Shown here: piece after piece, positions 479 through 29,729 of the stretch | Position numbering within the stretch: position 1 is the stretch's first letter | How the letters are laid out: each line of letters starts with the position of its first letter | Source of the DNA: a virus | IMG/VR virus record: IMGVR_UViG_3300032213_000108 | Coordinates: 1-37,974 of that record | Strand: one strand, 5' to 3' | Length of the DNA: 37,974 bases | Made by a program: the position numbers and the translations under genes | The notes under the pieces: model-generated | What the model was told of the DNA's origin: nothing | Databases searched by the model: none | What the model saw: only the letters and a program-made list of their open reading frames with translations

Positions 479-3325
479 ATGATGAAAGAATTTTATAAAA
501 AAGCATTGCCATCTACAGGCGTTTATTGCGTAGCTACAATCGATCCGATAGTTAAGTTAACTAAACACAAATTCGTAGAAAATATAGATGAGCTTGCTGA
601 GTTCATCGAGTCTAAAAAGAATACACCTACCAACATCTTTGTTGCGCTTAGTTCGTTCGGCGGATATAGTCGGAAAGCAGATGAGGCTAAGTTTGTTAGG
701 TCTTTCTTTGTTGACCTCGATGTAGGCGACGGCAAAGGCTACGCATCAAAAAAAGATGCACTTCAAGCGCTTGATCAATTCGTACTAGAAAATAATTTAC
801 CTCCTCCTGTTAAGATTGACTCGGGAACAGGTATCCATTCTTATTGGTTATTTGACCGAGACATTCCCGCGACTGAGTGGAAACCTTACGCAGAAAAATT
901 TAAAGACTTCTGTTTAACACATGGTTTAAACATAGACCCTGTGGTTACCGCTGATCTAGCACGTATCTTACGTTGCCCTGATACATTTAATCAAAAGACT
1001 ATGCCTCCTTCGCCAACTAAAGTTATCGGCGATGATTTACCTATTTATGTATTTGATGAGTTCAAAGAGTTCTTAGGTAATCTTGAACCAAGTCTTGCTG
1101 ATATATTACAAGCCGCACCTAAAGGACTTAGCGAAGATCAACGTAAAGCATTAAAGCTAGATAACTTTGAATCTAATTTTGAGAAGATTATACAATCGAA
1201 AGGTTGTGCTCAGATTAACTTCATTATGGATAATGTTAAAACACTACAAGAACCTTTGTGGTATTCAGGCTTATCCATAGCGCAACATTGTGCTGATAAA
1301 GAATCAGCAATTCATTTAATCTCAAAGGAGTATCCTAATTATGATGAAAGAGAAACTATTAGAAAAGCGCAAGCAACACAAGGCATGCCTCACTCATGTG
1401 AGACTTTCAATAATGTTAATCCAGGTATATGTACTGGATGCCCTAGTAGGGGCAAAATTACGAATCCGCTTGCTCTTGGAAAAATATTTAAAATAGCTGT
1501 CGAAGAACCGATCAAACCATTAGATCAATCAATGTCAGTTAAGACTATTGAGCATATTAAAGAACATGCAGAGGTAGTTACACGGGGTTTATCATCGTTG
1601 CCCGAGGCTCTCTATCCATTCGTATATGGTAAGCAAGGCGGTATCTATTGTATGCCTGCTCCCAAGTACGATGAAGATGGTGTGCCTATTCCTGGTGATC
1701 CAATATTAGTAACATTGTATGACCTATTCCCATTGAAACGGATTTATAGTCCAGCAGATGGAGATTGTTTATTGATGAAAGCGATATTGCCAAATGACCC
1801 TGAACGTGAGTTTTTACTCCCTATGAGCAGAGTTTATGCGGTAGAGGATTTAAAAAAGATTATTGCGTCTCAGGGTGTTTTATTTAATACAGATGCCAAA
1901 GGAGGCCAATATCTTATGAATTATATAGTTAAATGGGGTCACTACCTCACAAATAAAAATGCAGCAGAAATTATGCGTATGCAAATGGGTTGGACGCCCA
2001 ATCAAGAATCCTTTGTAGTAGGAGAATCAGAACTACTACGAGATGGTAAAGAAGTAACATCACCAACATCACCTTTATGTAAGAGTATAGCTAAACACTT
2101 AACGCCTGCAGGTTCCTACGAAGCATGGAAAGAAGCAGCTAATAAACTTAGTAAACCTAGTCTTGAACTACATGCGTTTACTTTGTTAACCGGGTTCGGC
2201 TCAATCCTCATGAATAAAACTTCGACATCAGGAGTTACTATATCCTTAACAGGTGAATCAGGTGCGGCTAAAACAGGCGCTCTATATAGTTGCCTCTCAG
2301 TTTGGGGTAACCCGAAAGACCTATCGGTACTAGAAGCTACAACAAATGGTATGACAGGGCGCTATTTAGGTTTACACAATATCCCATTTGGTTTAGATGA
2401 GGTAGGTAACATTATTCCTAAAGACTTATCTCAGTTGATCCACAAGATTTCACAGGGTAAATCTAAAATCCGTATGCAAGCATCAGTCAACGCAGAACGA
2501 GATCACGAGATGTCAGCATCATTGATTGCTATATTTACTTCTAACCAGAGTATGTATGACAAACTAAGTATACTGAAGAAAGACCCTAATGGTGAGGTAG
2601 CTAGGTTAATTGAGTTTGCAGTACGTAAACCTCAAGCGTTCCTTGACGAGCCTACACTTGGTAAAGAAATATTCGACAAGTTTAGATTTAATTATGGCTG
2701 GGCTGGCCGTGAGTTTATTTTTGCTTTGTATAAACATAGTGATGATGAAATTCAAAAGATGATGGATAAATGGGTTGACCAATTTAGAAAAGACTTTGGC
2801 GAAGATACCGCGTATCGATTCTATGAGAACTTAATCGCAGCTACAATGACAGGCGGCGAGATAGCTATTAAAACAGGCATAGTAAATTATGATCTTAAAA
2901 AGATTTATAACAGAATTGTCGGCGAGATGGTAGCTATACGTGATAACGTAGTTAAAGTTAATGTGATTGATTATGAAGCCCTTATCGGTGAATTTATTAA
3001 CACTCATCAAACAGGCATTCTTGCGTTCAAAGAAAATAAGATTTCAATGGAACCTCGTTCACCATTAGTTATTCGTGCTGAACTTGATACACATATGATC
3101 TATATATCTAAGCCTGAGTTTAGAAAACACTTAGCAGAGAACCAAGTCAGTACTCGCGAGTTCTTATATCAAATGAAACTAGCAGGTATAGAAGTAATTG
3201 AAAAACGTAAGAAGATGGGTTCAGGTTGGAAAGACGCGACAGGTACAATTAACATTGAAACTTATGTTATTAACACGACTAAATTATCAGACCGAGCATT
3301 AGGAGCCACACCTGAGCTTACTTAG
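479..3325 (+). CDS. Primase-helicase: AEP-type primase fused to DUF927-like helicase
   Basis: The 948-residue protein looks like a phage replication primase-helicase. The N-terminal part matches archaeo-eukaryotic primases: FFVDLD with D79 and D81 for metal binding, SGTGIH with H120, and ARILRCPDTFNQK at 161-173. A middle section carries a possible zinc site (C307, C318, C321). The C-terminal part is a P-loop ATPase resembling DUF927/helicase superfamily proteins: Walker A GESGAAKT at 592-599, where the usual GxGKT is replaced by GAAKT, and Walker B-like FGLDE at 637-641. It would make primers and unwind DNA at the phage origin. The start at the first of two ATGs is preceded by TTAGGAA. No separate polymerase gene lies in the window. 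Confidence 0.85.
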   Translation: MMKEFYKKALPSTGVYCVATIDPIVKLTKHKFVENIDELAEFIESKKNTPTNIFVALSSFGGYSRKADEAKFVRSFFVDLDVGDGKGYASKKDALQALDQFVLENNLPPPVKIDSGTGIHSYWLFDRDIPATEWKPYAEKFKDFCLTHGLNIDPVVTADLARILRCPDTFNQKTMPPSPTKVIGDDLPIYVFDEFKEFLGNLEPSLADILQAAPKGLSEDQRKALKLDNFESNFEKIIQSKGCAQINFIMDNVKTLQEPLWYSGLSIAQHCADKESAIHLISKEYPNYDERETIRKAQATQGMPHSCETFNNVNPGICTGCPSRGKITNPLALGKIFKIAVEEPIKPLDQSMSVKTIEHIKEHAEVVTRGLSSLPEALYPFVYGKQGGIYCMPAPKYDEDGVPIPGDPILVTLYDLFPLKRIYSPADGDCLLMKAILPNDPEREFLLPMSRVYAVEDLKKIIASQGVLFNTDAKGGQYLMNYIVKWGHYLTNKNAAEIMRMQMGWTPNQESFVVGESELLRDGKEVTSPTSPLCKSIAKHLTPAGSYEAWKEAANKLSKPSLELHAFTLLTGFGSILMNKTSTSGVTISLTGESGAAKTGALYSCLSVWGNPKDLSVLEATTNGMTGRYLGLHNIPFGLDEVGNIIPKDLSQLIHKISQGKSKIRMQASVNAERDHEMSASLIAIFTSNQSMYDKLSILKKDPNGEVARLIEFAVRKPQAFLDEPTLGKEIFDKFRFNYGWAGREFIFALYKHSDDEIQKMMDKWVDQFRKDFGEDTAYRFYENLIAATMTGGEIAIKTGIVNYDLKKIYNRIVGEMVAIRDNVVKVNVIDYEALIGEFINTHQTGILAFKENKISMEPRSPLVIRAELDTHMIYISKPEFRKHLAENQVSTREFLYQMKLAGIEVIEKRKKMGSGWKDATGTINIETYVINTTKLSDRALGATPELT

Positions 3326-3338
3326 TGAAATAGAATGG

Positions 3339-3512
3339 GTGTTTCCGTTTGAGGGTATGAGTATTGGGGATAGCTTTTTTGTTCCTACGCTTAAACCCTC
3401 ACCACTCATTTACGCATTAGAGACGGGAGCTAAAAGAGCAGGCGTTAAGGTTAGAGCGTTTGCTACTATAAAAGATGGCTGTCTTGGTGTGAGGTGCTGG
3501 AGATTAGCTTAG
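3339..3512 (+). CDS. Short conserved-looking phage protein (GDSFFVP type), start uncertain
   Basis: A frame that is open from base 3303 encodes a compact protein with the core FPFEGMSIGDSFFVPTL and the tail DGCLGVRCWRLA. This resembles a family of about 60-residue phage proteins of unknown function with a (W/F)PFExMxVGDSFF start and a GxRVWR end. The only in-frame ATG (3357) would cut off the PFEGM segment, so I use GTG 3339 (57 aa). A CTG at 3312 with AGGAG six bases upstream is another candidate and would overlap the primase-helicase gene by 14 bases. Its stop (3510-3512) overlaps the stop of the convergent giant gene (3509-3511). Function is unknown. Confidence 0.6.
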   Translation: MFPFEGMSIGDSFFVPTLKPSPLIYALETGAKRAGVKVRAFATIKDGCLGVRCWRLA

Positions 3513-6500
3513 CTTTGATTTATTTCTACCGCTCGTTTATGTAGTTGTTTTACATTATCAAGCATATTATTTTCAGACTCATTCAATCTATCAATAGCCT
3601 CTCGTTTTTCTTCAGGGGTTCTATTGCTATTCATGATAGCCTTTTTGTATTCTCTAAGTTTAGTAATTTGATTATGTAAGTTATTAACTGATTTATCTAC
3701 GGCCATAAAACCTTTATTTTTAGCTACATATTCTCTATACCCCTCAACATCGCCCTCTTGTAATAGCGCATTTGCAGAAGCTTTAGCAGTTAGTACCTTT
3801 TCATATAGTTCATAGAAGTCACTACGGTTACCTGTAGCTCTTTGGTTTTCTAACATAGATCCAACAAAGATAATATCGTTTGCGGTAGGCGCAGCTCTAT
3901 CATCCGAGAAGTAATTAGTAACTTGACCTATTGTTTGACCTAAATATCCAAAATAACCTTTTAATAATTTGTCAATCTTAATCGGAGAATAATTAAGTTG
4001 TGCACCAACTGCTTTAGCTAGTTCAGAAGTTTTTTCTGTATATTGTAAATAAGGTTCTTTTCTTTGTTGACCGGCACTTACTACAGGAAGGCCAGAGAAT
4101 AAGTCAAAGTTAGTATAGTTTTCAGCTAGAGGTCTAACAATAGAAGGTACTGGCGCAAAGCCTGCTATAAGTTCCCATGATTTACGTAATACAGCTGCAG
4201 CAACATCAGCGTCTTCTATATCAGCTTTAGGCGCATTTAATACCCACGCTCTTGTACCGCGTTCAACAGCTACCTTGAAGGGTCTTAATTCTTGTGGTAC
4301 TGGCATACGTAATCCACCAATAAAGAAGTTATTATCTTGTTGAGCTTCACTTTGATCTTCATAATCATCATCGCCACTCATGAATGCGGCGTACATACCT
4401 GTAAATATTGCGTATTTAGTAAGTCTCCACACTAATAGTTTCTTACCTTGTGCTTTAGAAACACCACCTATACGACCTCGAGCCGCTGCAATATCACGAG
4501 CCATACCTTGAATTGGAGGGTTAACGAAAGGCATCATACGACGTAAGTAAGCTAATGATCTAGACATACCCATTTGTTGATATGGCATATATCGATGTGC
4601 TCTTACTGCCGCGTAGTCTTCCGCAGTTTCTCTATCATAACCTTCAGCTTCTAATTCTTTTACAGCATTTTCATAGATAGCTTCACGAGCACCTAAATCA
4701 GAACCTTGCGCCATACGTTCGAAGAAGAACAATGACTTCTGCCAAATCTTTTTATCTTTGCCCTTATAGATATTAATTAAGTCTTTACTATCTAATACAT
4801 CTCGTTGACCAATAATACCGTAACGATTAAGCTTTTGAGCATTAGGTGATTGATCTGCACTAAATTGATTAATTGCAATAGACTTCCAAGTTTTTTTAAT
4901 ATTGTTAAGGAATCCAGCTTTATTACCTGATGTAAATGTAGCACGAATTGGATCTTCCCACGCTTGGTTCCATACGAATTGAGGCATCATTGTAATACCG
5001 TGGCGTAAACCTGCTACAGGATATTTCATTAAGTCCCAAGCGGCACCCGTAATAATAGGCGATGATGAAAAAGCTGCCATATCATTCGGGTCCATAACTC
5101 TAAAGTCTTTTGGTAGCCCATTAACATGAACTGTAACATAATGATATGCTTTCTTTTCTACATCAGTCATAGGTCTGTCGTACCATTGACCAACACCTAA
5201 TTGTTGCATCATATCAGCAGTAGATTTAGCAGCATTATTTTTAATACCGCGTTGCATCATCCATGACATATTTTCAATGTAGTTATCAATCGGATCTGCC
5301 GCGGCTCTCTTAGAACCTACGAGTCTATATTCTTTACCTGCGCCTAATAAACCTTTACCCCGCAGGTTAGGTCTATCAAATGTTTCAATTTCTTCTTCTG
5401 GTACGCGGTATAGAGCTACATATTCTGATCTATCTAAGAAGCGCTGAGCTTTTTCTCTAGTATAAAGATTTGCATCAACCAAGAAATCTAATAAGTCTTT
5501 ACGTTGAACATTACGCATATCTTGTAATTCTTTTAGTTCGTTGCCATATCTTCTATACGCTTCTTCAGCGGTTCTTTTATCTGATTCAGTCCACTCATCA
5601 ATATTAACTTTTTCATCTGCGTTTGCAGTTGCATTAAACTCTGCTAATTTAGCATAGCGTGGGCCATAGTAACCCGCCACTAACATATCATATGCAAGTT
5701 CTTTAGAACCTAATTCTTGTGTGGCGCGATCAACTAACTCATTCCATTTTTTAGATATGTCAATCATCTTAACTTTGTTAGGACCTGAGCTTGAGTCCGC
5801 AACAATTAAACCGCTCTTACGGAGTATTAATCTTCCCCAATAAAGCCCTGCTTGTGCAATAGACATAGAGTTATAGGCTTGTAAGTTAATCAAGTCACCT
5901 CTAATTCTACCTTCACGGAATCGATCTACTTCTGGTAAGTTAGCATCAAGACCTTTACGTTCAACGCTATAACGACCACCAACAATTTTATTACCTAACC
6001 AGTCACCCCATTTACGCCATTGATTAGTATCACCATTAAATGCTTCTCTAAACTTATCCATGATACCTTCTGGAGTATCTTCAACATATTTAAGTGGCGT
6101 GCCATCTGGTCGGGTCATACCTGCTGGCGCACGTCTAGCTTCTAATACTTCTTTAGGCGCTGTTGTTACTTCTGGTCCTGTCATAAATTGAGGACTGAGT
6201 AAAAGAATCTCATCTAGCATACTATGCGCAGAATCAGGTACACCAAATATAGATTTAAGTAAGTTAACAAAGTCAGACCATAATGTTGCAATCTTACCTT
6301 TAGCTGGTTTTAGTTTTAATATGCTCTCTTGATTTTGTAAAAATTGTTTGAGCTCTGGACTAGTTTCAGCTTCAGAGAAAAATTCTTTAATATCTTTTTG
6401 TCCATAAAAACTTACATTCTTTTTAGCAGCAGCTTGATTAAACGCCTCAAACAATCTTACAGCTTTTTTACCTAATGGAGTAACACCTATAGGTCTACCA

Positions 6501-9049
6501 TTTACTTCTTTAACATGTTTACTTAAAGCAGCTTCAGTTGCCGCATGATATATCTCATGCAAGGTAATTTGTACATGATCTTTAGCTTTAGGATTTACAT
6601 AGATATGATTAGTATTAGGATCGTAATAACCTGGTGCATTTCCTGTTGAAGCTACTTCTCGAGCAGTTGTAAATCGAGTTGTACCAATATTAGGAACGCG
6701 TCGTAATAAATTAATTAATGATTTTTGAGGTTGATTAGCCTCTTTAATAATAGTTTTTAGCGCTTCATCAGCATTAGTTACTTTGTTATAAATAGGTGTA
6801 GGCTCTGCTAATTCTTTTGGTGGTGCTTCAAGTATACCTTTTTCTGCTGCTGCAGCTTCTGCTAAATCTTTGTTAGCTTGCTCTATAGTTGTTCCCTCTG
6901 GATATGATTCAAGTGTACGCAACGGAGCTTCTTCTGCAGGAGCTTCTTCTCGCAAAGCCTGTCTTTGTTCTTCACGAGCAAGATATGCTTCTAATTCTGC
7001 ATCAGCTTGTTGATCGAGTGGTACTGCTTTCTTACCTTGTATTTCATCTATAATGAGATCAGACAATTCTCCTACTCCGCCATCAACCTCATTTAATACG
7101 TCAGCATTTAAATAACCTTTATCAACCGCAACTTGAACTGCGTCATCTAAGCCTCTACCATTTTTAGTAAATAGTCCTACAGTAGTACCAGATTTATTTA
7201 CACTTCGTTCACCTGTAAGATCAAATAGATGTTCAATATTAATACCACCACTTTGTTTTAACGCGGCTTGAATGCCCATAGCCGGTTTAAATTTAGGAAG
7301 CTTAATAACCTCTTCTGCTTCCGGCACAGTCTCAGGGGCTAGTGCAAGGTCGCTACTTCCCTCTCGTCCAGCAAGTTGTTGAACATTAGTTGCAACATCT
7401 CCCACTCCATTTCCGTCAACTCCTTCAATTCCTCCGGCAATTTCTCCTGCCATGGGTTCTCCAGATACTTGAACGCTTTCTCTAGATCCTTCGGGGATAG
7501 TTGTTTCATCTTTAGTAAATCCTTTTAATTCATAAGTTGTTGGGATTGAATCTAAATAATTCTTAATGCCTTCATATTGCTTAGACCCTTCTTCTTTGGT
7601 CTCTAGTAGTGCAGTTAATGCATTTCTAATCTGTTCATTCTCAGCAGGAATTTGTGGATCAAGTCCATGTAATTCTTTTTTCTTTCTTATTGTAGCAGTA
7701 GGTCCAATACTCATATCAGCAAATGTTTGATCATTTACTACTTTAGGCATTGTAGCTAAGCTGACTAGGTTAGTTGGTACACTTGTAAGTTCTTGTATCG
7801 CTTTTTTCTGTGCATCAAGGTCACCTTGTTCAATCGCTTTGTCGAACGCAATCTGCATGGTCTTAATAGATCTTGCAATCTTAGACTTCTCTGGCGCATA
7901 GTTACCTAGTTCATTGAGTGAGTCCTTAGCCAACTGAGCTGCTTCTTCCGCAGCTTGTTTAGTTTCAGCTTCACTTTGTGCAGCAAGTACAATCTCGTCA
8001 ATACGTTGTCTTTCTGAGTCTATTCTAGCGAGTGTTTGTTGACGACGTTGTTCATCTAGTTGTATCGTATTTTTAGCTTCAGTTCTTTCGGATAGACGGG
8101 ATACTGCACCTAGTGGACCAAGTGCAGCTGTTTGAGCAGCGATATCTGTGTATTCTTTTATAGCATCAGGCGTAGTGAGTGGTAAGTCAGCTTGGTAACG
8201 CTCAATCATTTGCTGTATAACTTCGGTAGGCACTTCTGCACCGACTAGCTTTCCGACCCCGACTGCACCAGATTTTAACGCAGATTCTTTAGCTATTTTT
8301 TCTAAAGTTTCTTGTGCTGCTTTTTCAGATGCCCTAGTACCTAACTTAGTTAAACCTAAGAATTTACCAAGTCCAATCTGCATCGCACCTACGTCTAACA
8401 AAGCGGAAGGAACAGCGCTACCATAAGCACCTAGCTTATCAATATCAACAGGTCTACCCGCAGCTTCGTCTTCTTGTATTTGTCGTTCAATGTTTGAGCC
8501 TGCAGTAGGTAAATAAGATGCACCAAATGCACCGAGTATAGCACCTGCCGGCTTAGCAAACGGTCCTACAATAGGAAGTACAGGAGGAGTTACTGCAAAA
8601 CCAGCTTTAGCACCTGCGGCCATTGAAGCAAAGTTAGGGATTTGTGAAGCTATACCCGCTGGGATTTCAGAAAGTAATTCGCGTGTACCTGGAATAAAGC
8701 CTTCTTTATAAGCTTTTTTGATTTCATCTAAACTAAAACCTGGACGCTCTGTAATTTTTTCTTGTCGAGCTTGGGCTCTTTGAGCTACTTCTTCATCCCG
8801 TAAGAAAGGAGTTTGGGCAGCAGTTAACGCAGATGCATATAATTGTTTAGCACCACCAACACCAGCTTCTAACATACCGCCTGTTTTAGGAGTAACTAAA
8901 TAACTAAGAATCTGATCATCTGTATAGCCTTCTTTACGGGCTTCAGCTATCTTTTCTTGTTCTGATTGCCATTTAGTTTTACCTAAATAATCTAGAACTT
9001 CAGAAGGACTATATCCTTGTTCAAGGGCTTCTTGGACTTTAGATTTCAT
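3509..9049 (-). CDS. Giant virion-associated polyvalent protein with HExxH metallopeptidase motif
   Basis: This 1846-residue protein is the last gene of the late block. The N-terminus has two short repeats of the EGYSxxEILxYL kind (residues 1-50). A Gly/Ala-rich hydrophobic stretch at about 145-190 could be membrane-active. Residues 831-835 are HEIYH, a zinc metallopeptidase motif, preceded by a strand (NHIYVNP) and followed by EFFSEA at 889-894, which could supply the third ligand. At about 1330-1600, including FVNPPIQGMARD near 1505, it resembles the LPD38 region of large polyvalent phage proteins. Such proteins are thought to be packaged and injected with DNA, so an internal/ejection role is inferred. 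It starts by a TAATG overlap with the previous gene. Confidence 0.7.
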   Translation of the reverse strand: MKSKVQEALEQGYSPSEVLDYLGKTKWQSEQEKIAEARKEGYTDDQILSYLVTPKTGGMLEAGVGGAKQLYASALTAAQTPFLRDEEVAQRAQARQEKITERPGFSLDEIKKAYKEGFIPGTRELLSEIPAGIASQIPNFASMAAGAKAGFAVTPPVLPIVGPFAKPAGAILGAFGASYLPTAGSNIERQIQEDEAAGRPVDIDKLGAYGSAVPSALLDVGAMQIGLGKFLGLTKLGTRASEKAAQETLEKIAKESALKSGAVGVGKLVGAEVPTEVIQQMIERYQADLPLTTPDAIKEYTDIAAQTAALGPLGAVSRLSERTEAKNTIQLDEQRRQQTLARIDSERQRIDEIVLAAQSEAETKQAAEEAAQLAKDSLNELGNYAPEKSKIARSIKTMQIAFDKAIEQGDLDAQKKAIQELTSVPTNLVSLATMPKVVNDQTFADMSIGPTATIRKKKELHGLDPQIPAENEQIRNALTALLETKEEGSKQYEGIKNYLDSIPTTYELKGFTKDETTIPEGSRESVQVSGEPMAGEIAGGIEGVDGNGVGDVATNVQQLAGREGSSDLALAPETVPEAEEVIKLPKFKPAMGIQAALKQSGGINIEHLFDLTGERSVNKSGTTVGLFTKNGRGLDDAVQVAVDKGYLNADVLNEVDGGVGELSDLIIDEIQGKKAVPLDQQADAELEAYLAREEQRQALREEAPAEEAPLRTLESYPEGTTIEQANKDLAEAAAAEKGILEAPPKELAEPTPIYNKVTNADEALKTIIKEANQPQKSLINLLRRVPNIGTTRFTTAREVASTGNAPGYYDPNTNHIYVNPKAKDHVQITLHEIYHAATEAALSKHVKEVNGRPIGVTPLGKKAVRLFEAFNQAAAKKNVSFYGQKDIKEFFSEAETSPELKQFLQNQESILKLKPAKGKIATLWSDFVNLLKSIFGVPDSAHSMLDEILLLSPQFMTGPEVTTAPKEVLEARRAPAGMTRPDGTPLKYVEDTPEGIMDKFREAFNGDTNQWRKWGDWLGNKIVGGRYSVERKGLDANLPEVDRFREGRIRGDLINLQAYNSMSIAQAGLYWGRLILRKSGLIVADSSSGPNKVKMIDISKKWNELVDRATQELGSKELAYDMLVAGYYGPRYAKLAEFNATANADEKVNIDEWTESDKRTAEEAYRRYGNELKELQDMRNVQRKDLLDFLVDANLYTREKAQRFLDRSEYVALYRVPEEEIETFDRPNLRGKGLLGAGKEYRLVGSKRAAADPIDNYIENMSWMMQRGIKNNAAKSTADMMQQLGVGQWYDRPMTDVEKKAYHYVTVHVNGLPKDFRVMDPNDMAAFSSSPIITGAAWDLMKYPVAGLRHGITMMPQFVWNQAWEDPIRATFTSGNKAGFLNNIKKTWKSIAINQFSADQSPNAQKLNRYGIIGQRDVLDSKDLINIYKGKDKKIWQKSLFFFERMAQGSDLGAREAIYENAVKELEAEGYDRETAEDYAAVRAHRYMPYQQMGMSRSLAYLRRMMPFVNPPIQGMARDIAAARGRIGGVSKAQGKKLLVWRLTKYAIFTGMYAAFMSGDDDYEDQSEAQQDNNFFIGGLRMPVPQELRPFKVAVERGTRAWVLNAPKADIEDADVAAAVLRKSWELIAGFAPVPSIVRPLAENYTNFDLFSGLPVVSAGQQRKEPYLQYTEKTSELAKAVGAQLNYSPIKIDKLLKGYFGYLGQTIGQVTNYFSDDRAAPTANDIIFVGSMLENQRATGNRSDFYELYEKVLTAKASANALLQEGDVEGYREYVAKNKGFMAVDKSVNNLHNQITKLREYKKAIMNSNRTPEEKREAIDRLNESENNMLDNVKQLHKRAVEINQS

Positions 9050-11472
9050 TATTTAAATATGTTGTTTAATGTCTTTGTAGGTGTTGCTGATTGAGTAGTA
9101 CCACCAAGTTTAGATCTCATCATATTAGCATACTCTTGGAAGGACATCTTAAAGTTTTTATCCATCATTTTTTCTTGTTGCCATAGGGGTAGTAGTTTAT
9201 CATCATCTAGACCACTTGATCCACTAAATGATTTATATGCTTGTGTAACTTTTGGTGCATCAAACACTTTAGTTGATTCACCTGTTTCAGGGTTCTTGAC
9301 AAGTTTATAATTATCAGGGTCTTGTTGAGCAATTGATAAGTATGTTTCATAGTCAGATTTCTTAGCTGCTGCTATTGCCGCTGTCTTCAACTGAACTTGA
9401 TTAGTAGCTGCATTACGTGCATTAGCATTATCTTCTTCCATTTGTTTAAGTTCTTTAGTAAGACCTGCTGAAACACCCGCAGCTTTTTCACCACGTTGAA
9501 CTTGATTGAGTTTAGCTCTAATATCAAGTTGTCTTTCATTAAGTTTATCAAGTCTATCACGAGCCGCAACATATTCAGAGATACCTAATTGAGCACCCTC
9601 ACCAATATTTTGTAAAGCAAACGGAGATTTACCCGCGGCTATACCAAACCCTGCTTTAGTTAATGCTAACCATGGTGCCATACGTTCTTGTTCTTTAGAG
9701 CCTAATTCAAGGTCTTGAACTTTTTTCATCAAAGTTTCGCGTTCTGGATCAGCACCCATCATCTCTTGGAATCGTTTAGCTGTTTCTTCCGCTGTATTAA
9801 CTGTAGATTTAGGTTTCTCTACGTTAGCATATGGGTTAAATTCTTGTGTCGCATTAGGCGGAACTTTGCCCTTTTCAGGAAGAGCTGGAATTCTAGGTTT
9901 AGTCATATTATATAGTTCAGACATATTGGGGTCTTTATATAAAGCATCTCTACTAAATGTAGCAGCTGCTAATGTAGGATCAAGTTCTGTTAAGTTCTCC
10001 TTTTTAGCCGCTTCAGATTTTTTTACTTCTTTTATTTTTTCAGCTTTATCTAATAGTTCTTCAACTTCAGATTTCTTTTTCTTTCTAAGCGCATCTGTTG
10101 AAGATGGTAAATCTTTTGCTTGAATAAGTTCACCTGTTACGGGATCTCTTACTACTCTATAACCAAATAAATTTCTTGATACTAAATCTTGAGCGCCTGA
10201 CACTAAATATCTTGGGTCTAAATAACTGTCAGCTAATGCAGCTTGATATTTTAAACTAGCTACAGATGGGCCACCTTCTACAAAGCGTTTAACTTCGCCG
10301 CCTTGTGCCATGCCTGGCATTCCTTGTGATATAGTTCTTCCATCGCCTGTTCTTTGTTGCGGACCACTATTATCGTATCTTGATACAAGTTCGCCTGTAC
10401 CCGTGTAATATTCTTTCTTAGGCACTTCTTGCACCCCAAAAAAAGCTCCCATACCTGAGCTTAAAAATTTTGCTCGATCTGACGGAGACATTTGAGAAAG
10501 AAACATTTTTCCTACTGGTGACATTGCGGCGCCATCATTAATTTGATATAAAAGATCATTAATTCCACTACCCCCACCACCGCCTTGCGTACCAGTATTT
10601 AGATTAAGTGAAGGAAGGTTATCTAAGTTCATACCTTTTTCTGTATCTCCACCTTCTGCATACCTTACTGGACCGCCTTGTGCCATAAATGGTGTATTAA
10701 TATCGCCTAGATAAGAGGCAGCTGACGTTGCTGGAGCATTAGAGAATTCTTGTGGTTCTTGTGCCATACCTTGTGATTTTTTTACCATGTGATCAACCAT
10801 AGCATTCATAGCGTTAGCAGGACGAGAATTAGGGTCTTGTTTGCCTCCCATTAAACCTGGTGCTATATGATCATACATAGCAGTCACAGCATTAGTATAT
10901 CGAGGTTCATCATTCTTATCAAAACCTGGAATAGCCATTCTAAGATATTCTTCCATACGTCTATCATACGGACGATTATCAAGTTGAATAGGGTCTATAT
11001 TTTGAGACATAGATTCACCAGTATTTAAATTAAGTGAAGGAAGGTTATCTAAGTTCATACCTTTTTCTGTATCTCCACCATCAGCGAATGCAACAATACC
11101 ACCATCAGCGTAGCTTTGTTCATTAAACATATCACCTACATCTAGCTCAGCTAGACCACCTTGTGCCATTTGTTGCATAGGCATTTCAGGCGGAGGAGCC
11201 ATAGCTTGCATCATAGGTTGGGCTTGTGGTAATCCTGCTACACCTTGTGGAGGCGGTGGTGGGGGTGGTTGGGTAGCCTCAGCAACTAAATCATCTGCTA
11301 CAGTCTTTTCTTCAGGCTTGTTAGCTTGGTATGAATTTCGCATTTCTTTTCTGCGTTGTAATTCACTTAACGCTAAATAGGTTGGTACTCGGCCTGTAGG
11401 GTTCTGCACATGCATAATAAGTGCATTATCAGGTAAGCCTTTAAGTTGATCCTGTAGTTTTAAGATGTTCAT
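9049..11472 (-). CDS. Large internal-virion candidate with GG motifs and LPSLNLNTG repeats
   Basis: 807 residues. The N-terminus (LQDQLKGLPDNALI, then YLALSELQRRKEMR) resembles a conserved uncharacterised family found beside internal proteins of marine and freshwater podovirus-like phages. A proline run (about 69-75) leads to a low-complexity region with MAQGGLAEL, YADGGIVAF, MAQGGPVRY and MAQGGEVKRF, and two copies of MNLDNLPSLNLNTG. The C-terminal half is Lys/Glu/Gln-rich and probably helical or coiled-coil. It is placed between the Gln-rich 598-aa protein and the 1846-aa protein, with a 1-base TAATG overlap with the latter. I infer a capsid-internal or ejection protein; no enzymatic motif is visible. 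Confidence 0.6.
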   Translation of the reverse strand: MNILKLQDQLKGLPDNALIMHVQNPTGRVPTYLALSELQRRKEMRNSYQANKPEEKTVADDLVAEATQPPPPPPPQGVAGLPQAQPMMQAMAPPPEMPMQQMAQGGLAELDVGDMFNEQSYADGGIVAFADGGDTEKGMNLDNLPSLNLNTGESMSQNIDPIQLDNRPYDRRMEEYLRMAIPGFDKNDEPRYTNAVTAMYDHIAPGLMGGKQDPNSRPANAMNAMVDHMVKKSQGMAQEPQEFSNAPATSAASYLGDINTPFMAQGGPVRYAEGGDTEKGMNLDNLPSLNLNTGTQGGGGGSGINDLLYQINDGAAMSPVGKMFLSQMSPSDRAKFLSSGMGAFFGVQEVPKKEYYTGTGELVSRYDNSGPQQRTGDGRTISQGMPGMAQGGEVKRFVEGGPSVASLKYQAALADSYLDPRYLVSGAQDLVSRNLFGYRVVRDPVTGELIQAKDLPSSTDALRKKKKSEVEELLDKAEKIKEVKKSEAAKKENLTELDPTLAAATFSRDALYKDPNMSELYNMTKPRIPALPEKGKVPPNATQEFNPYANVEKPKSTVNTAEETAKRFQEMMGADPERETLMKKVQDLELGSKEQERMAPWLALTKAGFGIAAGKSPFALQNIGEGAQLGISEYVAARDRLDKLNERQLDIRAKLNQVQRGEKAAGVSAGLTKELKQMEEDNANARNAATNQVQLKTAAIAAAKKSDYETYLSIAQQDPDNYKLVKNPETGESTKVFDAPKVTQAYKSFSGSSGLDDDKLLPLWQQEKMMDKNFKMSFQEYANMMRSKLGGTTQSATPTKTLNNIFK
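10591..10653 (-). repeat. Dispersed 63-bp repeat, copy 1 (encodes LPSLNLNTG block)
   Basis: This segment is nearly identical to 11017-11079 and related to 14182-14238. It encodes GGDTEKG followed by MNLDNLPSLNLNTG. The DNA identity is higher than the low-complexity surroundings would require. Confidence 0.85.
11017..11079 (-). repeat. Dispersed 63-bp repeat, copy 2 (encodes LPSLNLNTG block)
   Basis: Second copy inside the same gene, differing from copy 1 by a single base in 63 by eye. It is preceded in the protein by ADGGIVAFADGG. Confidence 0.85.
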
Positions 11473-11474
11473 AA

Positions 11475-13271
11475 TTATCCTCTGCCTAATACGTTAGCTA
11501 AACCAAGACCCGCTAAACCTAAACCACCAATTTGTGATGCCATAGATGGCGCAGGAGTATATGCAACTTGTGTTGAACCAAGCGCACCAGCGTTACCACG
11601 TAGAATATTACCATAATATTCAAGTAATGTTCTTTGATAGTTTTGAGCTTCTTGGAATTTTTGATATTCAAGATCTCTAATTTGTTGATTAAGCGCTTGT
11701 TTTTCTTCAGCAGTTGCAGCTTGCGCTTTAAGTCTTTCAAGATTAACTTGTTGTTCAGTAGCACCAAGAGCGCCGAGCGCTTTAGAACCTTCAAGCGCAG
11801 TAGAGAGCCCAGCTAAACCTACATCTTTACCTAAACCAGCAGCATATTGTTTGCCTTGTTGAGATAATTGTTGAGCTTGTAGAGCAGCAGCTTGGTTTGC
11901 TTTTTGGGCTTCTAGTGATTGTCCAGCACCTAATTGTTGTACACCAAGTAGAGCAGCTAAGTTTTGTTGACCTGTAGTTAAACCTGCTTGTTGGTTAGCC
12001 AACGCTGCTTTCATCGCTTGCTCTGCACTTAAACCTTGGGTTTGTAGTTGAGCGGCTAAGTTTTGTTGTTGTGTTGTTTGTTGTGTTTGTTGGTTAGCCA
12101 ACGCTGCTCTCAATGCTTGCTCTGCACTTAGCCCTTGAGTTTGTAGTTGAGCTGCTAAGTTTTGTACGTTAGCTGCTTGTGCATTTGTTAGATTAGCTAA
12201 TTGAGCTTGTAAATTAGATTGAGTACCTAGCTGTTGTACACCAAGTTTTGCGGCTAAGTTTTGTTGACCTGTAGTTAAACCTGCTTGTTGGTTAGCTAAT
12301 GCCGCTTGCAATCCATATTGTTGGTTAGCTTGTTGTGCTTGTAATTGACGCGCTTGATCTGCTTGGAACTGTGCTTGAGCATTTTGATATGCTTTTTCCA
12401 TACCTGTAGCTTGGATATCTGCCATAGTACGTTGAGTACCACGCTCTTGTTCTGCTTGTAATAAGGCTTGACGTGCACCACCAAAAGTTCCTCGACCCAT
12501 AGCCCCTGTCATACCTGCTTGTTTTTGTAAGTCGCCTTGTAAACGCGCTTCACGTAACGCTGGATTAATGGCCGCTTGTATATAAGGACTCATGTAATAA
12601 TCCGCTGCACCTTGACCAAAATTTTGTGTTGCTATATTTGAAGCGGCTACATTTTGTGCTGGACCCATTTGATATTGAGTAAGACTAGGGTTATAAGCCA
12701 TTTGTGCTGCGTTCATTTTGTATTGTTGTAATGACGGAACATTAATATTAGAAGCCCCACTCATTTGGTAATTTGTTAAGTTTGGCGCTGCTATATTTTG
12801 CGCTTGGCCCATTTGGTAATTCATTAAGTTTGGCGCCGCTATATTTTGTGCTGATATATCACCAGGGGCATATCCTAAAGCTTTATTTAAACCCGCTTGA
12901 GAAGCACCTAGACCTGTAGCTTGTAATGCACTTAACCCTGCGCCTGCTTGACCAAATTGTCCTGGAGTTTCGAGTCCTGCAACTTGTTGTTGTATTGCTA
13001 GCTGTTCTGGAGTAAATCCTGCAATTCTTTCGCCTGTGTATGGTACATAGGGTTTAATACCAGTAACGTTACCTGATGTATCAGTAGTAAATGACTGTTT
13101 ACCAGCTTGTTTTAAAAGTTCTTCATAGAACGGTTTAGCATACTCAGGTAAGTTAGTAGAATAAGAAGTGTTGGTAGTACTAGAAGGACCCCCACCTCCG
13201 CCGCCACCAAAGCTTAATGTAAAGAAGCTGATTAAGCTTTCTACCCAATTAAACAAGTTAAACAATTTCAT
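11475..13271 (-). CDS. Gln/Ala-rich helical internal-virion candidate
   Basis: 598 residues. A short hydrophobic N-terminus (residues 4-21) is followed by a glycine run and then a region with repeated NxxxYQM-type units (IAAPNLxNYQM, about 145-205). The centre and C-terminal half (about 260-520) are very rich in Gln and Ala with longer repeats such as NLAAQLQTQGLSAEQA and ALANQQAGLTTGQQNLAA, each present at least twice; these should form long helices or coiled coils. The end is hydrophobic and Gly-rich. This composition is typical of podovirus internal core/ejection proteins that line or exit the capsid, but no family can be named firmly. It starts with a 4-base ATGA overlap with the GNAT-like gene. 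Confidence 0.6.
   Translation of the reverse strand: MKLFNLFNWVESLISFFTLSFGGGGGGGPSSTTNTSYSTNLPEYAKPFYEELLKQAGKQSFTTDTSGNVTGIKPYVPYTGERIAGFTPEQLAIQQQVAGLETPGQFGQAGAGLSALQATGLGASQAGLNKALGYAPGDISAQNIAAPNLMNYQMGQAQNIAAPNLTNYQMSGASNINVPSLQQYKMNAAQMAYNPSLTQYQMGPAQNVAASNIATQNFGQGAADYYMSPYIQAAINPALREARLQGDLQKQAGMTGAMGRGTFGGARQALLQAEQERGTQRTMADIQATGMEKAYQNAQAQFQADQARQLQAQQANQQYGLQAALANQQAGLTTGQQNLAAKLGVQQLGTQSNLQAQLANLTNAQAANVQNLAAQLQTQGLSAEQALRAALANQQTQQTTQQQNLAAQLQTQGLSAEQAMKAALANQQAGLTTGQQNLAALLGVQQLGAGQSLEAQKANQAAALQAQQLSQQGKQYAAGLGKDVGLAGLSTALEGSKALGALGATEQQVNLERLKAQAATAEEKQALNQQIRDLEYQKFQEAQNYQRTLLEYYGNILRGNAGALGSTQVAYTPAPSMASQIGGLGLAGLGLANVLGRG
11930..12310 (-). repeat. Imperfect coding repeats (GLTTGQQNLAA and GLSAEQA units)
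   Basis: Within the Gln-rich gene, two kinds of unit recur. One encodes ANQQAGLTTGQQNLAAxLGVQQLG (two copies), the other NLAAQLQTQGLSAEQAxxAALANQQ (two copies). Long stretches are near-identical at DNA level, for example near 11965-12060 and 12075-12170. They look like internal duplications that lengthen a helical rod. Boundaries are approximate. Confidence 0.7.
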
Positions 13272-13678
13272 ATATTTTTCTCCACGACGTTTGTCACGAC
13301 ATTAAAACCCATTTTTATTTTATAAAGTCTTGCTTGAGCATCTTTTGCAAACGCTCTAATCTTAGTTGCACCTTGAGACCTTGCCCAGTCCTCATATTGC
13401 TTAATGGTGTTTTCATCGAATATTCCCTTGCCGCCTACAGCTGAAGTATGGACAACTCTATTATTTGGATAACTAATAACTTCTGCCGATAAAGCACCAA
13501 TAATTTTTTCATCTTCTACAAACACGAATAAGGTTTGTTTACCTTCAGTAAGTAACATTTTTAGCTGGTCAACGCTATAATCGTCTGTCCCTGCTCCCAT
13601 CGCCCTGTCAAAAAATGTTTCTATTTTGTCCCAAACTTGATGTATATAGTTGGGATGTACTATTTGCATTTGTTTCAT
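13268..13678 (-). CDS. GNAT-like N-acetyltransferase
   Basis: The 136-residue protein has the outline of a GNAT acetyltransferase as found among phage virion genes. Features are an N-terminal helix with VDQLKMLLTEGK, two strands TLFVFVED and IIGALSAEVISYP, a central VGGKG turn where acetyl-CoA would bind, a helix YEDWARSQGA, a strand IRAFAK and a final hydrophobic segment YKIKMGFNVV. GNATs transfer an acetyl group to amines; the substrate is unknown. The gene is joined to both neighbours by 4-base ATGA overlaps, so it is translated with the internal virion proteins. The canonical Q/RxxGxG/A loop is degenerate, so activity is uncertain. Confidence 0.6.
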   Translation of the reverse strand: MKQMQIVHPNYIHQVWDKIETFFDRAMGAGTDDYSVDQLKMLLTEGKQTLFVFVEDEKIIGALSAEVISYPNNRVVHTSAVGGKGIFDENTIKQYEDWARSQGATKIRAFAKDAQARLYKIKMGFNVVTNVVEKNI

Positions 13679-25095: not shown

Positions 25096-25122
25096 ATTAT
25101 ACCTTAACTACAAGGTTGTGAA
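25096..25122 (-). promoter_or_regulatory. Candidate promoter ahead of the 411-aa fibre gene
   Basis: On the minus strand, TTCACA (25122-25117), a short 15-base spacer, and TATAAT (25101-25096). The -10 is perfect and the -35 is five of six, but the spacer is shorter than usual. It overlaps the end of the upstream gene and sits in a 46-base gap. Confidence 0.45.
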
Positions 25123-26324
25123 GTATTAATTGTGTCCCAACTTGGCGTTTGGTCGTCGTTTATATCTGTCCATGTACCTGAAGGCGTTGAAATTGTAGAC
25201 CAACTTGGCGTTTGAGCATCGTTTATATCTACCCATACCCCAGCCGGTGTTGCAATAGCATTCCACGAAGGTGTTTGGCTATCGTCAATTCTAAACCAAC
25301 CGTTATAGCATATATCATCAAGTAAAGTTATTGCCTCAATGATTGACTGTGAAAAATTAGACTGCTGAGTAGATGCATCGTTTAACTCTATATTTTCTAC
25401 TCTTACTACGACAAATTGATTAACTGCAAAACTATCATCATTAGCTGTAAGAGGCTCAGTAATAGTAAATAGATAAGCAAACCCGATAGCCTCAGCGTCT
25501 TCTATTACTATATCTTCTACTTGTGTAACAGTAAAATTAGAGACAATACTATTTAAATCGGCTATATTTATGTCTTCAATTGTAGATACTGCAAACTGAG
25601 CTGTAATAGTAGGCGTGTCATTTAAATCTACATTTTCTGATCTATCCACTGCAAACTGAGCTGCAATAGTAGGCGTATCATTTAAATTTACATTTTCTGC
25701 TTTAGATACACTAAACTGCGCTGCAATAGCACGAGTATCATTTAAATCTACATTTTCTGTTCTATTTACTGCAAACTGAGCTGCAATAGCGGGTGTATCA
25801 TTTAAATTAACATTTTCTGACCTAGATACCGCAAACTGCGCTGCAATAGCTTCTATATCATCAAGTCTACTATTTTCTGTTAATACATCTACATATTGAG
25901 CTGCTAGTGTAGCTGAATCATTAAAATTAGCATTTTCAGTTGCTGACTGTAAAGCCGCAAAAAAGGGTACTAGTACATCATTTAAATTAACATTTTCTGT
26001 AACACTTTGTGAGAACCCAGCTGATATTGTTTGTTGATTTTCTACTGTTTGATTCTCAGTAATACTTTGTAAGAAGTTAAACTGATCTGATCTAACATCA
26101 TTTACACTTATAAGTTCATTAAGAGTTCCAATGAATAAAGCACCTAGTGAATTAAAGTCATCTATTTCAGTTATAGGTTCAGTAATACTTTGTGTAAAAC
26201 CCCAAACTTGAGCATTATTATCAGCTATACCAAAGTTTTCAGTTAATGACTCAAAAAAACTAGCCCCTCCTCCTGAAGGCAGCGCAGCAAACGGTACCTC
26301 GGCAAATGAAGCGTATCCAAACAT
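25104..26324 (-). CDS. Repeat-containing structural protein (20-residue repeats)
   Basis: 406 residues. The N-terminus MFGYASFAEVPFAALPSGG is a motif known from phage structural proteins. The body is made of about a dozen 20-residue repeats of the form AIAAQFxVxRxENVNLNDTP, acidic and strand/turn-like. The last part has three 21-residue repeats centred on QTPSW and WxDIND. Such repeats should build an extended shaft or a decorated surface, probably on a tail fibre or appendage. It lies between two fibre genes. No enzymatic motif is present. Confidence 0.6.
   Translation of the reverse strand: MFGYASFAEVPFAALPSGGGASFFESLTENFGIADNNAQVWGFTQSITEPITEIDDFNSLGALFIGTLNELISVNDVRSDQFNFLQSITENQTVENQQTISAGFSQSVTENVNLNDVLVPFFAALQSATENANFNDSATLAAQYVDVLTENSRLDDIEAIAAQFAVSRSENVNLNDTPAIAAQFAVNRTENVDLNDTRAIAAQFSVSKAENVNLNDTPTIAAQFAVDRSENVDLNDTPTITAQFAVSTIEDINIADLNSIVSNFTVTQVEDIVIEDAEAIGFAYLFTITEPLTANDDSFAVNQFVVVRVENIELNDASTQQSNFSQSIIEAITLLDDICYNGWFRIDDSQTPSWNAIATPAGVWVDINDAQTPSWSTISTPSGTWTDINDDQTPSWDTINTSQPCS
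25137..25290 (-). repeat. 63-bp tandem repeat (three units)
   Basis: Units of 63 bp encode 21 residues around DxQTPSWxxI. The first two units are the most alike; the third is diverged. Confidence 0.75.
25561..26040 (-). repeat. 60-bp tandem repeat array, about eight units
   Basis: The period is exactly 60 bp, so the frame is kept; units 25591-25850 are the most alike, and outer units fade into weaker copies. Each encodes a 20-residue unit ending in ENVNLND. Confidence 0.9.
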
Positions 26325-29117: not shown

Positions 29118-29729
29118 TTAGCTTGTTGCTGTAGTTGAGTATGTAACTGCTACGGTATCACCAGCTGTTGTAATTTTAGCCACTGCAAAAGCACCCGCTG
29201 AATACAATACACCTGCAGTGGAGCTTTGAGTACTTACAGCACCAGAACCTGTGACTAAGAAGCAACCACTTACTGTACCGCCAGCACCTGTAATAGTGTA
29301 AGTAATAGCTGTTGCAGAACAAGTAGTCACATTAGATGGTGTTGATCCTGTTGATGTTGAAGCTGAAAATACTGCTGTACCACGCACTGCTGAACCACCC
29401 ACTGTATAGTTAGTAAATTCTGTCCAACCAGCGTGAGATGTTCCAGTATCAGAGCCTGTACCAAATGTCGGAGTAGCGCCACCAATTAAACCTAAAAATG
29501 GTCCTACTGTTGTATATGTACCAGATGTACGAAGTAGTGTATTAAGTAATAACTCTTTACCTACAGCGTTAACTAGATTAGGAAATGATTCTTCCCATTT
29601 TAAATTGCCTTCTTTGTCACGGCATGTAACTTTATAGTGGCCTTCTATACCGACTGTTTCATTTGCTTGAGCTCCGGCATTTAATGTGATCATAGCATTA
29701 TCACCGAATCCGCCTGTTTCTTTAATCAT
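29118..29729 (-). CDS. Virion structural protein (beta-rich, GLIGG type)
   Basis: 203 residues. The N-terminus includes HYKVTCRDKEGNLKWEESFPN and NAVGKELLLNTLL, followed by FLGLIGG and HAGWTEFTNYT. These occur in a conserved phage structural family that sits between adaptor and fibre genes. The C-terminal part is Thr/Ser/Ala-rich beta sequence. It may form a fibre base or collar. The start at 29729 has AAGGAG at good spacing; the internal Met at residue 13 is less likely. Confidence 0.6.
   Translation of the reverse strand: MIKETGGFGDNAMITLNAGAQANETVGIEGHYKVTCRDKEGNLKWEESFPNLVNAVGKELLLNTLLRTSGTYTTVGPFLGLIGGATPTFGTGSDTGTSHAGWTEFTNYTVGGSAVRGTAVFSASTSTGSTPSNVTTCSATAITYTITGAGGTVSGCFLVTGSGAVSTQSSTAGVLYSAGAFAVAKITTAGDTVAVTYSTTATS

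What the first reader, a model, noticed from the sequence alone, without database searches (positions are those of the whole stretch)
3509..9049. HExxH metallopeptidase motif buried in a 1846-aa late protein
HEIYH at residues 831-835, a beta strand before it and EFFSEA 54 residues later look like a zinc peptidase. It lies in the last gene of the late operon, with a possible LPD38-like C-terminal region. An injected protease could attack host or superinfecting-phage proteins, or self-process the polyprotein.
Basis: partly seen in the sequence, partly recalled or inferred. Interest (0 to 1): 0.55.

Follow-up and report, generated by a model that had tools for sequence, protein, structure and literature searches.

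The report
Zinc-protease domain in phage ejection protein
A phage carries a very large late protein with a convincing zinc-protease domain of a kind already described in proteins that phages carry in their particles and inject; it is probably a working enzyme, but what it cuts is unknown.

Summary
The 1846-aa ORF has one HExxH (HEIYH, 831-835) and a Glu 54 residues on (E889). HExxH is kept at 85 of 86 loci with the domain (the exception is cut by its contig end) and in 11 of 11 fetched named-phage proteins found through the domain without a motif pattern. An AlphaFold2 model (pLDDT 87) places HExxH and E889 on two helices beside a small sheet. The domain profile against PDB sequences returns, below E 0.001, only phage ejection or internal virion proteins (ΦM1 tetrameric ejection protein 2e-10) and anthrax lethal factor (4e-4). 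LPD38 is real (88.7 bits, cut-off 27). This is the zincin-like metallopeptidase of phage 'polyvalent proteins' (Iyer et al. 2017), probably in an ejected virion protein. The peptidase reading is supported; the target (own chain, ejection complex, or host) is not established. Post-ejection processing is my first choice. By-product: the ΦM1 ejectosome domain published as 'endolysin/exotransglycosidase-like' (268-528) appears to contain this zincin, as do proteins annotated 'internal virion protein with endolysin domain'. New member of a known kind.

The parts
3509..9049 (-). 1846-aa polyvalent late protein, last gene of the - strand late cluster
   Evidence: long relatives in separate metagenome contigs
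6194..6835 (-). zincin-like metallopeptidase domain, residues about 739-952
   Evidence: AF2 pLDDT 87.4, pTM 0.83; profile hits to ejection proteins and lethal factor
6545..6559 (-). HEIYH, residues 831-835: two predicted zinc-ligand His and the general-base Glu
6404..6406 (-). Y882, seven residues before E889, aligned with the Tyr of lethal factor
6368..6385 (-). EFFSEA, residues 889-894; E889 is the predicted third zinc ligand
3512..6172 (-). C-terminal half, residues 960-1846, the most conserved part among close relatives (mean column identity 88% over 8 rows)
3875..4372 (-). LPD38 (PF18857), residues 1560-1725
   Evidence: 88.7 bits against cut-off 27
8348..8632 (-). Ala/Gly-rich moderately hydrophobic stretch, residues 140-234, possible membrane-active segment (speculative)
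   Evidence: Kyte-Doolittle peaks 1.2-1.5, none above 1.6
9049..11472 (-). 807-aa upstream late protein, gp15-like position (by order only)
   Evidence: relatives in the same place in several loci; no PDB relative (one chance-level row at E 0.52)
11475..13271 (-). 598-aa late protein, weak DNA-ejection-protein match, gp14-like position (by order only)
   Evidence: phrog_4287 E 0.037; no PDB relative
13268..13678 (-). 136-aa GNAT-acetyltransferase-like protein in the same block
   Evidence: (phrog_1249 E 5e-05)

Best explanation
Residues about 739-952 are a zincin-like metallopeptidase domain of the lethal-factor-like (gluzincin) type. H831, H835 and E889 bind zinc, E832 is the general base and Y882 a likely transition-state stabiliser (roles inferred from the family). 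It is embedded in a large LPD38 polyvalent protein that is probably packaged in the virion and ejected with the DNA, in the role of T7 gp16 / ΦM1 gp48. Most likely it acts after ejection, cutting its own chain or neighbouring ejection proteins so that the conserved C-terminal half is freed or the transient channel is remodelled. Shown here: motif, conservation, predicted fold, family. Inferred: virion location, activity. Guess: post-ejection self or ejectosome processing rather than a host target (about 0.4 for that last step taken alone; the 0.6 below is for the reading as a whole, carried mainly by the first two).
For: HExxH at 85 of 86 loci with the domain and in 11 of 11 fetched named-phage proteins found through the domain; the downstream Glu in register in 6 of 6 printed profile alignments. 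AF2 model with confident catalytic helices. Domain profile against 177635 PDB sequences: 8vb2_A ΦM1 tetrameric ejection protein 2.4e-10, 23sg_S 'gp10' 7e-09 (by eye very close to the AltoGao internal core protein L096), 9sfn_G internal virion protein 2.8e-08, lethal factor about 4e-04, nothing else below 0.001. Structural matches (Z, rmsd, aligned): lethal factor 4pku 7.5, 4.7, 158; 8vb2_A 7.1, 5.1, 152; Certhrax 6.0, 4.2, 138; N4 vRNAP 2124-2362 5.9, 4.3, 167; PPEP-3 5.8, 4.7, 136. BB8, KiKu and HRP29 carry the domain in the third of three consecutive internal virion genes, AltoGao likewise with the middle one annotated hypothetical. The window domain matches phrog_4529 'minor head protein and DNA pilot' at 1.1e-06; 13 of 14 aligned members match virion RNA polymerase phrog_2206 and 10 of 14 metallo-protease phrog_87, the window itself not at E 0.1. 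Iyer et al. 2017 describe this domain class and list LPD38 as phage-type only.
Against: No activity, zinc or virion data. Foldseek against PDB gave no match at E<=0.001 (best row is lethal factor at 0.06), and all VIA Z-scores are under 8, which the tool says may be a common arrangement. Pfam metallopeptidase models stay under their cut-offs (DUF6782 22.1 against 27); NCBIfam gives nothing. The LPD38 half has no sequence relative among solved ejection proteins, and the two upstream genes have none either, so gp16-likeness rests on the zincin domain and gene order. Of four phage proteins fetched for their LPD38 half, only Pag-Yong1 has a zincin; HTVC010P, PTXU04 and the fetched part of phiARM81mr have no HExxH, so the protease is not needed for the LPD38 function. 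Tyr before the Glu is missing in 5 of the 11 named-phage proteins.
Confidence: 0.6

Rival explanations
1. It is an injected effector that cuts a host or rival-phage protein early in infection.
For: Lethal-factor-like profile and fold; Iyer et al. name host targets as one possibility.
Against: No target evidence. The same domain recurs in phages of very different hosts and in solved ejection proteins, which fits a delivery role at least as well.
Confidence: 0.25
2. It self-processes before or during packaging, as proposed for P1 DdrB.
For: The domain lies between a less conserved N-terminal and a more conserved C-terminal half; DdrB precedent in Iyer et al..
Against: ΦM1's homologous protein is present over most of its length in the mature particle (1103 of 1263 residues); N4 vRNAP is reported packaged unprocessed.
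Confidence: 0.2
3. A catalytically dead zincin kept as a structural spacer, or a non-proteolytic HExxH enzyme.
For: The N4 structure preprint mentions HExxH also in radical-SAM enzymes; a HExxH oxygenase domain scores Z 3.9, rmsd 5.3, 140 aligned.
Against: HExxH is among the seven invariant columns of a domain whose distant rows are only about 19-30% identical to the window; a spacer would not be expected to keep it.
Confidence: 0.12
4. Chance motif in a long protein.
For: A shuffle of this protein has an HExxH in 11 of 2000 cases.
Against: Conservation, model and profile hits.
Confidence: 0.01

Closest known systems
Zincin-like MPTase domains of phage polyvalent proteins (Iyer et al. 2017, PMC5512222)
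   Same: HExxH helix, downstream Glu helix, small sheet, large late phage protein with LPD domains; LPD38 listed as phage-type only
   Different: This sequence scores under Pfam's DUF6782 cut-off and does not match MPTase-PolyVal; which of Iyer's 12 clades it belongs to was not tested
ΦM1 tetrameric ejection protein gp48 (PDB 8VB2, PMC11440229)
   Same: Same domain by profile (2.4e-10) with HExxH and Y-x6-E-F in register; one of three ejection proteins
   Different: Published region 268-528 is called endolysin/exotransglycosidase-like; no relation found to the LPD38 half; 1263 aa instead of 1846
N4 virion RNA polymerase gp50, C1 domain (PMC12633501)
   Same: HExxH zincin-like domain in a giant ejected protein; Z 5.9
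   Different: No RNA polymerase found in the window protein; the Tyr before the Glu is absent in L028 (annotated vRNAP) and in L024 (unannotated Schitoviridae ORF)
Anthrax lethal factor and Pro-Pro endopeptidases (family label M34 recalled)
   Same: Top structural matches; Y-x6-E spacing and EF aligned
   Different: Bacterial secreted enzymes; identity about 19%
P1 DdrB (from Iyer et al.)
   Same: Phage virion polyvalent protein with an MPTase domain
   Different: Different partner domains; processed before packaging

Membership tests
Zincin-like metallopeptidase superfamily | HExxH on a helix | tested here: met
Zincin-like metallopeptidase superfamily | third ligand, Glu on a following helix (gluzincin) | tested here: met
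   49 of 49 rows, but 48 match a search pattern containing it; in register in 6 of 6 printed alignments of pattern-free named-phage proteins; E[FLMI] by loose criterion in 11 of 11
Zincin-like metallopeptidase superfamily | three-stranded sheet with flanking helices | tested here: met
   predicted model only
Zincin-like metallopeptidase superfamily | zinc bound and proteolytic activity | not testable with these tools
   needs protein
Phage polyvalent proteins (Iyer et al. 2017) | MPTase plus LPD domains in one large late protein | tested here: met
Phage polyvalent proteins (Iyer et al. 2017) | carried in the particle and delivered | not testable with these tools
   gene order and relatives only
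Pfam LPD38 PF18857 | curated score | tested here: met
   88.7 bits against 27
Pfam DUF6782 PF20573 | curated score | tested here: not met
   22.1 bits against 27
Pfam MPTase-PolyVal PF18818 | curated score | tested here: not met
   matched by 1 of 14 members at best E 0.084; not listed for the window domain at E 1
T7 gp16 / ΦM1 gp48 type tetrameric ejection protein | zincin domain homologous to ΦM1 gp48 | tested here: met
T7 gp16 / ΦM1 gp48 type tetrameric ejection protein | hub region related to gp16/gp48 outside the zincin | tested here: inconclusive
   C-terminal profile found only a designed repeat protein at E 0.0013
T7 gp16 / ΦM1 gp48 type tetrameric ejection protein | one of a set of neighbouring ejection-protein genes | tested here: inconclusive
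   third of three large adjacent late genes, but the other two have no recognised ejection-protein relative beyond a PHROG match at E 0.037
Lethal factor / PPEP family | Tyr seven residues before the Glu ligand | tested here: met
   present in the window; read by eye in 6 of 11 pattern-free relatives
Lethal factor / PPEP family | fold match clearly above background | tested here: inconclusive
   Z 7.5, rmsd 4.7, 158 aligned, under 8

The most novel reading that the evidence does not exclude
A lethal-factor-like protease is a widespread working part of podophage DNA-ejection machines, mislabelled 'endolysin domain', and it cuts ejection proteins after delivery to remodel or close the trans-envelope channel.
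Probability: 0.2. Interest if true: 0.7.

Novelty: new member of a known kind. Interest (0 to 1): 0.36.

Why it matters
How phages close the ejection channel after DNA entry, and how giant injected proteins become active, is open (the N4 preprint says the ejectosome must gate or disassemble). A conserved protease in the ejection protein gives a single-residue test. It also suggests that a domain in a solved ejectosome (ΦM1) and in annotated internal virion proteins should be re-examined as a zinc peptidase rather than a peptidoglycan enzyme.

Tried and rejected
Whole-protein PDB search: three chance-level decarboxylase rows. First AF2 model with 7 rows had pLDDT 71.8 and no significant PDB match; a 49-row alignment gave the better one. 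GTDB genome scan with the domain: 136 candidate stretches, none confirmed. Domain-only scan of viral contigs with the single sequence: 2 loci. C-terminal half against PDB: only a designed repeat protein. The 807- and 598-aa neighbours: no PDB relatives and no match in the phage collection at E 0.001; the 203-aa ORF 29118-29729 likewise. tRNA and Rfam scans of the window found nothing and NCBIfam nothing for this protein. PADLOC was not run. Chance motif rejected on conservation.

Literature: PMC5512222, PMC12633501, PMC8954989, PMC8472413 and PMC6115819 were seen as passages; PMC11440229 as outline, section 7 and passages. In PMC11440229 the terms protease, peptidase, HExxH and metallo have no occurrence in the main text. 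I saw no paper calling the domain of Autographiviridae ejection proteins a zincin in searches; two searches listed 15 of 30 and 15 of 80 papers, and of the listed papers I opened only the six above. Supplements (including Iyer's) and most subscription journals were not searched.

Full report
The ORF 3509-9049 on the - strand encodes 1846 aa. HEIYH at 831-835 is its only HExxH, and E889 of EFFSEA lies 54 residues after H835. Shuffling the protein gives an HExxH in 11 of 2000 trials, so the motif alone would be modest evidence. LPD38 at 1560-1725 is clear (88.7 bits, cut-off 27). The window is a virus record of 37974 bases.

Conservation settles that the motif is real. Seven loci match large parts of the protein. 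Alignment-based scans added further loci, the distant ones about 19-30% identical to the window in the domain. Of 86 loci with a domain hit (L008-L014 dropped first; L024-L029 from annotated phages included; many near-identical), 85 carry HExxH; L019 begins after the motif. L007 begins after the domain and gave no hit. In 49 non-redundant rows the only invariant columns are H831, E832, H835, Y882, E889, F890 and L904. A caution: 48 of the 49 rows match the search pattern with Y and EF, so only HExxH escapes that selection. Eleven proteins from named phages, found by tblastn with the domain and no pattern, were fetched out of the 19, 26 and 17 records listed there. All 11 have HExxH and, by a loose criterion, an E[FLMI] 47 to 66 residues after the first His (58 in the window). 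Profile alignments were printed for six, and the Glu is in register in 6 of 6. By eye, 6 of the 11 have Tyr seven residues before that Glu; 5 do not. Four more phage proteins were fetched for their LPD38 half: Pag-Yong1 has a zincin hit with HExxH, the other three have none.

Fold. With 49 rows AlphaFold2 gives pLDDT 87.4 and pTM 0.83 for the domain: strands, the HExxH helix (825-842), one more helix, and the helix with E889 (887-894). The domain profile against PDB sequences returns seven distinct sequences below E 0.001: 8vb2_A (ΦM1 tetrameric ejection protein), 23sg_S ('gp10', by eye very close to the AltoGao internal core protein), 9sfn_G (internal virion protein) and four lethal factor constructs. 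Foldseek alone finds nothing at E<=0.001 (lethal factor is first at 0.06). VIA-align gives lethal factor Z 7.5 (rmsd 4.7, 158 aligned), 8vb2_A 7.1 (5.1, 152), Certhrax 6.0 (4.2, 138), N4 vRNAP 2124-2362 5.9 (4.3, 167) and PPEP-3 5.8 (4.7, 136). All are under 8, so the fold match alone is not proof, but it agrees with the sequence profile. With the first, weaker model the BFVD library gave 11 matches at E<=0.001, among them polyvalent proteins and Bordetella phage BB8 internal protein D.

Context. In BB8, KiKu and HRP29/Buco the domain lies in the third of three consecutive internal virion genes, and in AltoGao in the same place with the middle gene annotated hypothetical. In the window the protein is likewise the third of three large adjacent late genes (598, 807, 1846 aa), and parts of the block, with a GNAT-like gene in front, recur in relatives. 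The first two have no recognised ejection-protein relatives beyond a 0.037 PHROG match, so this part is an argument from order. The modules are mosaic: 3 of 4 distant relatives scanned carry LPD39 and one LPD38, 5 of 6 checked loci have a second HExxH domain, and LPD38-half proteins without HExxH exist (HTVC010P, PTXU04, the fetched part of phiARM81mr).

Re-reading of a published structure. The ΦM1 paper assigns TEP residues Asp268-Asp528 to an 'endolysin/exotransglycosidase-like domain' from BLASTP and DALI. Our profile aligns TEP 353-510 to the zincin with HExxH and Y-x6-EF in register, and the model superposes on 279-506. I take this as a probable zincin; the map was not inspected. The terms protease, peptidase, HExxH and metallo do not occur in the main text.

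Mechanism. Iyer et al. propose for these domains self-processing before or after delivery, or cleavage of host proteins. ΦM1 TEP is present over 1103 of 1263 residues in the mature-particle structure and N4 vRNAP is packaged unprocessed, so cleavage before packaging seems not general. The zincin lies between a less conserved N-terminal part (9-61% identity per 50-residue block, but 67-75% at 601-700) and a C-terminal half at 64-89%, which would suit release of the C-terminal half after entry. I rate post-ejection self or ejectosome processing at about 0.4, a host or rival-phage target at 0.25. No data here decide it.

Verdict: a real, probably active zincin of a known class, a new member of a known kind. 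The extra value is the link to solved and annotated ejection proteins labelled as endolysins.

Noticed in passing
PDB 8VB2 chain A residues about 279-510; L095, L096, L097: ΦM1 tetrameric ejection protein and Autographiviridae counterparts, labelled endolysin-like or internal core protein, contain the same HExxH zincin.
   Followed up: partly
L054, L056, L063, L089, L092: Relatives with a second HExxH domain in the same protein.
   Followed up: no
window 11988-12197 and 12745-12845: The 598-aa late protein has coding tandem repeats (99- and 48-base units) and is about 200 aa longer than its five best-scoring relatives (375-402 aa, stop to stop).
   Followed up: no
window 25583-25941: Tandem repeat of 60-base units inside the 406-aa ORF 25104-26324.
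   Followed up: no
window 13268-13678: Small GNAT-like acetyltransferase gene with relatives at many of the loci upstream of the polyvalent gene.
   Followed up: no
window 479-3325: 948-aa + strand ORF with DUF927 and primase/helicase matches, convergent with the late cluster.
   Followed up: no
L101 5770-7284: Pelagibacter phage HTVC010P has a 504-aa LPD38-half protein without the zincin, so the two modules are separable.
   Followed up: partly
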